Positions 19,023 through 62,104 of a DNA stretch of 64,000 nt are shown here, piece after piece. The stretch lies in the NCBI RefSeq assembly GCF_028858725.1, contig NC_084771.1:11126915-11190914 (forward strand), in the 5' to 3' direction. Under the pieces are notes generated by a model, which saw only the letters and a program-made list of their open reading frames with translations, did not search any database and was not told the origin of the DNA. This DNA comes from Colius striatus (taxonomy: Eukaryota; Chordata; Aves; Coliiformes; Coliidae). Positions within the stretch are counted from its first letter, which is position 1. Each line of letters opens with the position of its first letter. Position numbers and translations under genes: made by a program.

Positions 19023-19097
19023 GATTTGTTGTCTTCAAACAGTAACTGAAGAGAAAGTTGCATCTGAGAGCCATGCTGTCCCTGGGTATCAGTAAAG
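19023..19097 (+). CDS. ZNF185: ZNF185 exon 1 (start codon; coding 19073-19097)
   Basis: ATG at 19073 with G at -3 encodes MLSLGISK plus one base. An in-frame TAA at 19043-19045 rules out an earlier start in this exon. The exon ends AAAG before GTAATT. CATTTCTTCCAG just before 19023 is a good acceptor, so a non-coding exon probably lies upstream; alternatively transcription starts close by. Human ZNF185 begins with an equally short coding first exon. Confidence 0.75.
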
Positions 19098-22000
19098 GTA
19101 ATTCCTTTCCCCATCCCAAGCTGTTGGGGATCTGTCTGTTGTCAAGGCCTTTCTTTGCTCAGCAGCATATGCTGTAAGATCTCTGCTCAGCTCCCTCAGT
19201 GCAGTGTGTGGAGGGGTAGAGTGCACCTCTTCCTTATGTGGGACCTGCTCCAACCTGTAGCTCTGAAATTATGTGCATTTAGCTCTAATTTCAGTACCCA
19301 TGAAGGGGCTGAGGTTTTGAGTTAAGCAAAAAACTATTAAACTCTCACATTCCCTTTCCAAGACCCTCCTTAAATTTCTCTGTCTTTGAAGTGTCTGCTG
19401 ACAATACTGCAGGAATTAGCAGCCAGTGCAGTGGCTGAGCAGGATGGCTTCCCTGTATCTCTGTCTATCCACACCCTCTTGGTGTCTCTTCTAGTGACAA
19501 AAACCTGAAGTCTGTGGGCTGGACACCACCCTTGTGCCGTATCCACACAAGGAGAAGACTGCCTTTATTATTAACAACTCCTAATAATGTCTTGTTGTCA
19601 AAGGAGTGTGAAAAACAAATCAAAGTGTGGCTACAGGTTGCTCTGAGTTGTCCCAGGAACGTGCTCAAACTGCAGAATTCTGTGTCAGAGTCTGAGATTT
19701 GATTTTTAAGCAACAGATGCTCACAAGACCTTTAGATGTGAGTAGGTGGGATGATGCTTCCAAACCCGTGGGTAATCTGAAGCAATAATCTGCAGAAGAA
19801 TAGAAATCTCTTATTTCCATTAGGCAATAGCTTTAACTTGCAATTTGAGGGTTAAGAAAAGCAGTCCTTCCCTTTCTGGGTGCTCCCCATGTATTACTGC
19901 TGATCCCTAAACTGCACCCTGATGTGGTTGTGGCCCTGCACAACTGTGTCTTTTAACTGCTACTGCTAATTCCATGTGAGGAAGGATATTGCCCTCATTG
20001 CTATAGTTGGTTTTTCCTTGGGGACTATCCAATGTGACCAGCTGTTTAAAAAACCCCAGACAACTCCTACCCCTACTCCACAACATATACTTGAAGCACA
20101 TGGTTGTGTGGCAGAGATGAACCAATTTACTGCATGTCAGCTGCTCAGTGATAACTATTCCATCATGAGCACGAGATAGAGACACTTAGATGACTTTCCT
20201 GGGAGCTAAATTGAGTTCTTTCATGTTTGCCACAGGCTCAGAGTGTTCAGGCAGTTCCCTTGGCTTGGATGATAAGAAGCTGTAAAGCTGCAATAACTTG
20301 TTGATGTCTCTTAAAGCCCTGAGCTGTACTGGTCTAAGTGTGATGTTGTTTTCAGCCTTTGCCAGTAATTTCCAAAGTGGCAAAAGATGGAGATAGTAAA
20401 AAATACCTGGAAAAGGAGATTTTCTTTTCTGATCTTCATCTTACAGCTTCCCCAGGTAGTGACTTCCCTCAAAAGAAAACAAATGCTGAATAAAGAAATC
20501 AGTACAGAATAAACAAACAAGCAAATGCTGAAGGGGCAATTTCCCACTTCAAGTGCCCTTTATTTTTCTTTTAATCATAATATTCAGCTGCAAAAAATTT
20601 GTTTCAGCAGGACTTTGGTACTCAAGGGTGACTGAAGCCCTTCCCATCAGTTACCTGCACATTTCCTTCCTTTGTGAGACACTGTTCCCCTTTTTCCAGC
20701 AATCCATCTCTTTCCTTGCCTGCTCCCAATATCTTTGGCTTGAATACTCCTCCCCATTAATCTGTGCTTTTTTCTACCAGTATTTTTCCCAGTGGGAGGA
20801 CTTGGCAACTCCTGCTTCATGACTTTCTGCAATTTTCTACATTTTAATGTTATGTTTTAACTGCAATTGCTGACTTTCTTAACCAGACAATGTGGCTTGA
20901 ACAGAGACAGGGAGCAGAATGAGGACAGTGGTGGAGTTGCTCTTGATCAGCAAAAGAGAGACCATGCAGGATAGAACATTTTCAGATTTGGGCCAGAACC
21001 ACACCGTTAAGGAGACATGGTTTGAGAATATGGTTTGGAAACTGAACTTTGTACTGGAAATGTGGAACCAAAGGACACGTCTCCAACTCTGACAGGCCAC
21101 CAGAGAGAGCTGACAGCTGGGTGTTTGCATTTTGTGGTTTACCCCTAACCTGCAACTCTTGTCTCAGCTTCATACTCCAAACATATCATCCTCTCCCACA
21201 GACTAAAAAAAAACCCCTTATGCTAGAGCTGATGTGATGGGAAATGCCAGAGGAAACTCACTGCTTCATGAATGATGGAATTAGATGACCCACTGAATGT
21301 CTTTGGTCTTCCTGAGAGAAGAAGACTCATTAATGTTAAACAGTCCTCTGACAGGAGAGACAGAACTGTGTAGATCTCTGTAGAGGAGGTGGTGCATCAG
21401 GTACATTGGCTCTGAAGTCTGGATGACAGTTTGTTTCCATCTTTCATCAGAAATTTGAGTCTGGCTGAAAGGAGACTCATGCTCTTTGCTCTCTGAGGTT
21501 TACTCTGGTTCACCTGCTGACACTGAATTCTTGCCCTTTCTCAGCATCCCTTCTCCTCTCTCCTCCCTTACCTTCTGCCTCTGCCAGGAGGTGTCATCCC
21601 ACCCACGGATGAGGACCGCAGGAGGATCATTAAGCAGATGAAGGTTCGTACCACCCTGAGAGGAGATAAGAGCTGGATCCACCACCACAACTCAGACTCT
21701 GAGGATGAGAAGAGCAGCCCACTGTAAGTGTGGCCAGCAAGCAATGCTCCTCCCTTCCCTTTCCCTCCTCAGCCTCCTGTGAGTGCTCTGTTCTCCAGCC
21801 TGCAGAAACAGCATATGTGGTGCTGGTGGGTTTTGGAGTCCCCATGATGCCAGGAGATGATACTGCCCAAGGGAAGGGGTGCTCCAGAGTGGTTTTGTTA
21901 AACACAGACTGGAGAGCAGCTCTGAGAAACGGCCTTTTCTGGGAGCTCCAAAGTCTTTTGAAGCCAGATTCTGTGTTTCAGCATCTCCAGAGTGACAAAG

Positions 22001-61845: not shown

Positions 61846-61970
61846 ACTAAAGACTTAATTTTGATAACTCTTCTATTGCTTTCTGTTAGATATAGTTTAG
61901 TAAATACTACTTCTGTGGCTGTATGTTTTGAGTTAATGAGAAGTTTTGTACTGTCTCAATCCTTGCACAG

Positions 61971-62104
61971 GCTCTATGTGTCCCCGAGAAGACCCACAGA
62001 TCAGAAAACGAACTCTCCTTTAAAATGGTGCCGGCAGCTGTTGGATAATCCCAGCCCCGAGACAGAAGCAGCCTGCAGAACTCTCATAAACAGACTTGAT
62101 CAAG
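61971..62104 (+). CDS. SLAIN-family protein, second coding exon
   Basis: Residues 237-281: WLYVSPRRPTDQK then SPLKWCRQLLDNPSPETEAA and CRTLINRLDQ. This is the most conserved SLAIN block (human SLAIN2 has WLYSSPKK, PLVWCRQVLDYPSPDVE and LDQ at the same places). Acceptor CCTTGCACAG; the split Trp codon TG-G joins exon 2 in phase. Donor CAAG before GTATGT, phase 1. The rest of the gene, with the C-terminal SxIP-like and ch-TOG-binding regions known in the family, lies beyond the window. Confidence 0.93.

What the first reader, a model, noticed from the sequence alone, without database searches (positions are those of the whole stretch)
19023..62104. ZNF185 followed by a SLAIN gene mirrors the SCEL-SLAIN1 pair
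Seen: ZNF185 and a SLAIN-family gene lie head-to-tail on +, 0.7 kb from the end of one to the CpG island of the next. Known: in human, SCEL (the ZNF185 paralogue) and SLAIN1 are neighbours in the same order on chromosome 13, followed by EDNRB; human ZNF185 sits on Xq28, with no SLAIN gene beside it that I know of. Inference: both pairs descend from one ancestral LIM-SLAIN pair by whole-genome duplication, and the SLAIN copy by ZNF185 was kept in birds but lost in the mammalian line. The avian EDNRB2 gene, which belongs to an Xq28-like region, may lie further downstream.
Basis: partly seen in the sequence, partly recalled or inferred. Interest (0 to 1): 0.75.

Follow-up and report, generated by a model that had tools for sequence, protein, structure and literature searches.

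The report
Third SLAIN gene in duplicated chromosome block
This bird carries a third, intact SLAIN gene beside ZNF185, inside a block whose five duplicated genes repeat the order and direction of a block on another chromosome, as expected for a relic of ancient vertebrate genome duplication that the human lineage seems to have lost in part.

Summary
ZNF185 (+) is followed by a SLAIN-family gene (+). The window's own genome (1.21 Gb) has three SLAIN loci: C1, C4 and this one on C15. I modelled all three: same intron phases, open frames, the same final W[KR]DGCY motif. With recalled human sequences as yardstick, C1 is SLAIN1 and C4 SLAIN2 (80% each). The window gene lies outside both pairs (100/100); grouping it with the bird's SLAIN1 is rejected (p-AU 2e-5). 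EDNRB2 lies 28 kb downstream, as predicted. C1 reads SCEL(+)-SLAIN1(+)-EDNRB(-)-POU4F1(-)-SPRY2(-); C15 reads ZNF185(+)-SLAIN-like(+)-EDNRB2(-)-POU4F-like(-)-SPRY3(-). Two other C15 neighbours looked for, VAMP7 and NSDHL, showed no C1 copy. SLAIN2, EDNRA, POU4F2 and SPRY1 are on C4. A whole-genome-duplication paralogon fits best. The gene is already annotated in goose and pigeon as "SLAIN motif-containing protein-like"; I found no paper stating the paralogy. Loss in mammals and the age of the duplication were not tested.

The parts
19023..19097 (+). ZNF185 probable first coding exon (ATG 19073)
   Evidence: acceptor ...TTCCAG before 19023, donor GTAATT at 19098; no independent homology in this exon
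21588..21723 (+). ZNF185 exon with the [16 protein letters not shown] motif
   Evidence: tblastn with recalled human ZNF185, 65% identity; splice sites
24411..24455 (+). ZNF185 exon piece ([15 protein letters not shown])
   Evidence: 93% to recalled human ZNF185
25100..25180 (+). ZNF185 exon piece
   Evidence: 48% to recalled human ZNF185, E 0.018
26171..26257 (+). ZNF185 exon piece
   Evidence: 72% to recalled human ZNF185
43261..43356 (+). ZNF185 exon piece ([11 protein letters not shown])
   Evidence: 58% to recalled human ZNF185
44551..44640 (+). ZNF185 LIM domain, first half
45153..45257 (+). ZNF185 LIM domain, second half, and stop codon
47750..47755 (+). AATAAA, the only AATAAA or ATTAAA between the ZNF185 stop and 49000; possible end of the ZNF185 transcript
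   Evidence: use as poly(A) signal inferred
48341..49620 (.). CpG island, probable promoter and non-coding first exon of the SLAIN-like gene (weak donor candidate at 48947)
   Evidence: GC 0.72, observed/expected CpG 0.91; donor score only in the top 10% of GT sites
51811..52538 (+). SLAIN-like gene, first coding exon (ATG 51829; EVRKLQELVRRLE coil motif from 51970; ends inside the conserved Trp codon)
61971..62104 (+). SLAIN-like gene, second coding exon, start of the Pfam SLAIN domain; the gene continues beyond the window
   Evidence: PF15301 E 4.6e-20; splice sites; genome-wide search

Best explanation
The SLAIN gene beside ZNF185 is an intact third SLAIN paralogue. It is an ohnologue of SLAIN1, sitting in one of up to four copies of an ancestral block LIM - SLAIN - EDNR - POU4F - SPRY made by the two whole-genome duplications of early vertebrates. 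C1 keeps SCEL-SLAIN1-EDNRB-POU4F1-SPRY2, C15 keeps ZNF185-SLAIN-like-EDNRB2-POU4F-like-SPRY3, C4 keeps SLAIN2, EDNRA, POU4F2 and SPRY1 spread out, and C11 keeps POU4F3 and SPRY4. Shown: three genes, shared exon phases, tree position, order and direction. Inferred: that whole-genome duplication rather than a large segmental duplication made the copies, and that the SLAIN-like, EDNRB2 and POU4F-like copies were lost on the line to therian mammals (for EDNRB2 this is in print). The protein most likely works as a microtubule plus-end protein like SLAIN1/2, binding EB proteins through an SxIP motif and helping to bring ch-TOG to growing ends. That function is inferred from its relatives and was not tested.
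For: Three SLAIN loci, 16 matches of 16 candidates scored, all on C1, C4 and C15. Coding models with identical intron phases 2,1,1,1,1,1,2 (for SLAIN1 counting a candidate alternative exon) and the same final W[KR]DGCY motif. The tree places the window gene outside the SLAIN1 pair and the SLAIN2 pair, each 100/100; joining it to any one of the four is rejected, p-AU 7.9e-5 or lower on the two data sets, and 2.1e-5 and 3.0e-4 for the two pairs tested. Collinear and co-oriented copies of five families on C1 and C15. SLAIN, EDNR, POU4F and SPRY each have a member on C4 too, and POU4F and SPRY also on C11. Goose has SLAIN-like, VAMP7, RPAC2-like and endothelin B receptor-like in that order; pigeon names the same four genes in one 215-kb region.
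Against: No outgroup was available, so the tree is unrooted and cannot show that SLAIN1 rather than SLAIN2 is the closest relative. On the core alignment, of 108 columns that tell SLAIN1 from SLAIN2 the window gene agrees with SLAIN1 in 29, with SLAIN2 in 39 and with neither in 40, and the midpoint root puts it on the SLAIN2 side. It is a long branch (program warning). Age is shown only to precede the bird-mammal split. The human sequences were recalled, not fetched. Of seven gene families of the C15 region that I looked for, five have a C1 copy; VAMP7 has none on C1 in a genome-wide search at E 0.001 and NSDHL none in the C1 stretches fetched. The families were not chosen blind: POU4F and SPRY were picked after recalling the neighbours of human EDNRB and reading the guinea fowl and duck lists.
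Confidence: 0.87

Rival explanations
1. The gene is the bird's SLAIN1 (or SLAIN2), merely fast-evolving or misplaced.
For: It shares several stretches with SLAIN1 (78% in one exon).
Against: SLAIN1 and SLAIN2 are both found elsewhere in the same genome, from start to stop and 80% identical to recalled human proteins; SCEL and EDNRB flank SLAIN1 there; AU tests reject joining it to either.
Confidence: 0.01
2. One large segmental duplication, not whole-genome duplication, copied the five-gene block before the bird-mammal split.
For: Order and direction are well kept between C1 and C15, which a segmental copy would also give; age was not dated.
Against: Third and fourth family members lie on C4 (SLAIN2, EDNRA, POU4F2, SPRY1) and C11 (POU4F3, SPRY4), the pattern that two genome duplications leave; the SLAIN divergence is deep (38-42% identity).
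Confidence: 0.1
3. The SLAIN copy came next to ZNF185 by chance (transposition or retrocopy).
For: None found.
Against: It keeps the introns in the same phases, so it is not a retrocopy, and the other four families match in order and direction. With five oriented genes there are 1920 arrangements up to reversal.
Confidence: 0.01

Closest known systems
SLAIN motif-containing protein-like (pigeon LOC102097680, goose LOC106047489)
   Same: Same name and neighbourhood: in pigeon a 215-kb region holds VAMP7, RPAC2, EDNRB2 and part of the SLAIN-like gene, and ZNF185 to TMLHE is named as the syntenic span; goose start positions run SLAIN-like, VAMP7, RPAC2-like, endothelin B receptor-like. Very probably the orthologue (inference).
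   Different: In the passages I read it is an unnamed neighbour of a plumage locus; sequences were not compared here.
SLAIN1 of the same genome (C1) and human SLAIN1 (recalled)
   Same: Same exon phases, SLAIN domain, final DGCY, and the equivalent neighbours.
   Different: 38% identity over 493 aligned residues to bird SLAIN1; start codon in an exon after the CpG island instead of a GC-rich first exon; first coding exon unalike except at its coil and its end; one SxIP motif against three in bird SLAIN1.
SLAIN2 of the same genome (C4)
   Same: Same exon phases; two exons of identical length, 138 and 319 bases; 42% identity over 503 residues.
   Different: The EDNR, POU4F and SPRY members on C4 are 36-46 Mb away; no ZNF185/SCEL-type gene was found on C4.
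EDNRB/EDNRB2 paralogy
   Same: EDNRB2 as a duplicate of EDNRB, lost in therians and kept in monotremes, chicken, lizard and many fish, is in print (PMC12346172, passages; PMC6504862, passages).
   Different: Neither set of passages mentions SLAIN or ZNF185; in PMC12346172 neither word occurs in the main text.

Membership tests
SLAIN family (PF15301) | Pfam SLAIN profile above its cut-off | tested here: met
   72.9 bits against a cut-off of 27 for the window exon; further C15 exons cover profile positions up to 409 of 429
SLAIN family (PF15301) | N-terminal coil EV[KR]KLQELV[RK]KLEKQNEQLRSR (motif taken from the SLAIN1 and SLAIN2 rows) | tested here: inconclusive
   first half kept (EVRKLQELVRRLE), second half (KQNEQLRSR) changed
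SLAIN family (PF15301) | SxIP motif for EB binding | tested here: met
   one, SRIP at residue 520; bird SLAIN1 has three, bird SLAIN2 one; that SLAINs are SxIP proteins is from PMC4834103 (passages); binding not tested
SLAIN family (PF15301) | C-terminal W[KR]DGCY (motif taken from the SLAIN1 and SLAIN2 rows) | tested here: met
   last exon from C15:11199106...EDDSWKDGCY stop
SLAIN1 orthologue | groups with avian SLAIN1 inside the SLAIN1 clade | tested here: not met
   p-AU 2.1e-5, 4.6e-6 and 5e-10
Ohnologue of SLAIN1 (2R) | paralogous neighbours in matching order | tested here: met
   five families, same order and direction on C1 and C15; two further C15 neighbours looked for, VAMP7 and NSDHL, without a C1 copy
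Ohnologue of SLAIN1 (2R) | duplication dated to the base of vertebrates by a rooted tree | not testable with these tools
   no fish, lamprey or invertebrate genome could be searched
ZNF185 | LIM domain closer to ZNF185 than to SCEL | tested here: met
   LIM pieces 52% and 61% over the aligned stretches to recalled ZNF185 against 40% and 32% to recalled SCEL; SCEL itself found on C1; Pfam LIM only 19.7 bits, under the 22.9 cut-off

The most novel reading that the evidence does not exclude
A whole ohnologous neighbourhood, SLAIN-like, EDNRB2 and a fourth POU4F gene, within about 210 kb between ZNF185 and SPRY3, was kept in birds and dropped on the line to therian mammals while ZNF185, VAMP7 and SPRY3 stayed (their presence in human is recalled). 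Birds would then run three SLAIN and four POU4F genes, with the third SLAIN a specialised plus-end protein with altered coil and fewer EB-binding motifs than SLAIN1.
Probability: 0.5. Interest if true: 0.55.

Novelty: new member of a known kind. Interest (0 to 1): 0.42.

Why it matters
It adds SLAIN, the ZNF185/SCEL pair and a fourth POU4F gene to the published EDNRB/EDNRB2 paralogy and gives a clean example of a duplicated block in one bird. It tells those mapping plumage genes at EDNRB2 that the SLAIN-like neighbour is an old, distinct gene with a likely role at microtubule tips. It gives a named set of gene losses to date in mammals, and platypus would be informative because it keeps EDNRB2.

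Tried and rejected
Tried without result: Pfam on the long first coding exon and five other long reading frames, no family; solved structures, no SLAIN relative, two weak matches (E 0.025 and 0.031) that I take for chance, and for the LIM domain only CRP1 at E 0.0014; recalled CETN2, NSDHL and VAMP7 against the window, nothing better than E 0.055, though NSDHL lies 6.7 kb upstream of the window; more ZNF185 exons between 26.3 and 43.2 kb (one search printed nothing, probably a wrong program option of mine, which also emptied the tblastn step; not repeated); a POU4F comparison in which my script picked a wrong frame for the C11 copy, so only the C1, C15 and C4 differences are used, the C1 row there being the recalled query, which one search found 100% identical; a paper on the endothelin system that I recalled by DOI is not held. 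Paper searches for the paralogy. Lists were capped (20 of 68 papers, 20 of 74) and I saw titles, starts of abstracts and the passages named in the report; none stated it. Considered and dropped: that the gene is SLAIN1; that it is a retrocopy; that the clustering is chance.

Full report
What was claimed. It named two refuting results and suggested that EDNRB2 may lie further downstream.

The observation. ZNF185 is there on the + strand. The next gene is a SLAIN gene. The exon 61971-62104 matches PF15301 at E 4.6e-20. The exon 51811-52538 carries ATG 51829, with an in-frame stop at the exon's first codon, and encodes the EVRKLQELVRRLE coil found near the start of human SLAIN1 and SLAIN2 as recalled. 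It ends within the Trp codon of the conserved WLY. Of all GT or AG sites in the window, these two exons' donors rank in the top 2% and 0.8% and their acceptors in the top 1.4% and 2.1%. The stretch from the ZNF185 stop to the SLAIN start is 6.6 kb.

The whole gene. The window's genome is held: 1,212,370,026 bases in 191 contigs, with the window at C15:11126915-11190914. I fetched the rest of the gene. The model has eight coding exons, the last from C15:11199106, ending ...EDDSWKDGCY. No stop interrupts the first seven exons (636 residues). By count the full protein is about 658 residues.

Three SLAIN genes. PF15301 finds 16 exon matches (16 of 16 candidates scored) at three places: C1:43.49-43.53 Mb, C4:71.57-71.58 Mb and C15. 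I built the C1 gene (550 residues) and the C4 gene (571 residues) from start to stop. Against recalled human proteins C1 is SLAIN1 (80% of 534) and C4 is SLAIN2 (80% of 567). The window gene is 38% identical to the bird's SLAIN1 over 493 residues and 42% to its SLAIN2 over 503. Intron phases agree in all three. The extra exon present in the window gene and SLAIN2 has a counterpart in SLAIN1 that my first SLAIN1 model left out (L024:5564-5713, the same length, 150 bases, as in the window gene).

The tree. With five rows (three bird, two recalled human) the SLAIN1 pair and the SLAIN2 pair each have support 100/100 and the window gene is outside both. Holding it with bird SLAIN1 costs 34.9 log-likelihood units (p-AU 2.1e-5), 33.6 (4.6e-6) with the extra exon added and 47.4 (5e-10) without the first exon. 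Joining it to any of the other three is rejected too (p-AU 7.9e-5 or lower; 3.0e-4 for bird SLAIN2). So it is older than the split of birds and mammals. The tree has no outgroup and the gene is a long branch, so which of SLAIN1 and SLAIN2 is nearer is open: of 108 telling columns, 29 agree with SLAIN1, 39 with SLAIN2 and 40 with neither, and the midpoint root of the core tree puts it on the SLAIN2 side. The human proteins are recalled; errors in them would add noise.

The block. On C1 the LIM exons of SCEL lie at 43471165-43474675 (+), SLAIN1 from 43489563 (+), EDNRB at 43608681-43622921 (-), POU4F1 at 44006665-44007144 (-) and SPRY2 at 44838067-44838402 (-). On C15 come ZNF185 (+), the SLAIN-like gene (+), EDNRB2 at 11227499-11232368 (-), a POU4F gene at 11316415-11316891 (-), 92% to POU4F1 over 159 residues, and SPRY3 at 11381967-11382302 (-). 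Order and direction agree for all five families. There are 1920 arrangements of five oriented genes up to reversal; the families were not chosen blind, so this is not a probability. The names of the SPRY, POU4F and EDNR copies are mine, by similarity, position and recall. In the EDNRB search (127 of 268 candidates scored) 18 of 122 matches have 52% identity or more, six at each of C1, C15 and C4:35.22-35.25 Mb; the others are 47% or less. In the POU search (102 candidates scored) 4 of 10 matches have 84% or more: C1, C15, C4 and C11; the other six are 53-62%. Sprouty (13 candidates scored) gives 6 matches: C1, C4, C11 and C15, and two weaker ones on C8 and C3 that I take for SPREDs. On C4 the order is SPRY1(+) 25.96, POU4F2(+) 34.83, EDNRA(+) 35.22, SLAIN2(-) 71.57 Mb, which is the C1 order read backwards, directions included, but spread over 46 Mb. 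C11 has SPRY4(-) 19.22 and POU4F3(+) 20.28 Mb, whose directions do not follow the pattern.

Neighbours that do not match. VAMP7 (-) lies at C15:11204060-11210890, between the SLAIN-like gene and EDNRB2, and has no C1 match at E 0.001. NSDHL (+) ends 6.7 kb upstream of the window and has no match in the C1 stretches fetched, 43423001-43634000. So five of the seven families of the C15 region that I looked for are shared with C1.

What is in print. [quoted passage not shown] the authors took syntenic regions from ZNF185 to TMLHE (spelt TMHLE there) in fifteen birds and six other tetrapods (PMC10588866, passages). Goose: SLAIN-like 689,355, VAMP7 717,937, RPAC2-like 737,829, endothelin B receptor-like 745,589 on one scaffold (PMC8249929, passages). 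I did not search RPAC2 in this bird. Guinea fowl: TMLHE, SPRY3, EDNRB-like, VAMP7 in that order of coordinates on chromosome 8 (PMC6579635, passages). Turkey: a list ending TMLHE, SPRY3, VAMP7, ZNF185, NSDHL, CETN2 (PMC8470100, passage). Duck: TMLHE, SPRY3, BRN3, EDNRB2, VAMP7 and SCEL among genes with associated SNPs (PMC9317390, passages); 'BRN3' there fits the fourth POU4F and 'SCEL' may be ZNF185 (inference). EDNRB2 is lost in therians and kept in monotremes (PMC12346172, passages). Nine paper searches found no statement of the SCEL-SLAIN1 / ZNF185-SLAIN-like paralogy (some lists were capped; only listings and the passages named here were seen; the library lacks most subscription journals).

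How it most likely works. SLAIN proteins are EB-dependent SxIP proteins that help bring ch-TOG to growing microtubule ends (PMC4834103, passages; PMC7129064, passages). The window gene keeps one SxIP motif (SRIP) where bird SLAIN1 has three and bird SLAIN2 one, keeps the first half of the coil, and keeps the C-terminal end. I infer the same kind of function, perhaps weaker or specialised; nothing here tests it.

Limits. Whole-genome duplication is inferred from the pattern on four contigs; dating needs an outgroup. Loss in mammals was not tested. One genome was examined.

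Noticed in passing
G000:C15:11316415-11316891 (-), L037: A fourth POU4F gene, POU domain 92% identical to POU4F1 over 159 residues (14 of 160 positions differ), with a stop codon after KFSAAY. Human has three POU4F genes (recalled).
   Followed up: partly
G000:C7:19009762-19010073 (+): A VAMP7 copy spanning residues 1-104 in one stretch, 90% identical, with two stop codons inside: probably a processed pseudogene; such copies are uncommon in birds (recalled).
   Followed up: no
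L024:5564-5713: SLAIN1 has a candidate alternative exon equal in length (150 bases) and start (ASRW.NL) to an exon of the window gene.
   Followed up: partly
G000:C4:25.96-71.58 Mb: SPRY1(+), POU4F2(+), EDNRA(+), SLAIN2(-) stand in the mirror order and direction of the C1 block, stretched over 46 Mb.
   Followed up: partly
window 10788-11333 (+), 17171-17626 (-), 50843-51154 (-): Reading-frame remnants that look like CR1 LINE 3' ends (recognised by recall).
   Followed up: no
window 51829-52538: The first coding exon of the SLAIN-like gene is long (237 codons) and lies in AT-rich sequence (GC 0.40-0.42), unlike the proline- and alanine-rich first exons of SLAIN1 and SLAIN2 in the same genome.
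   Followed up: partly
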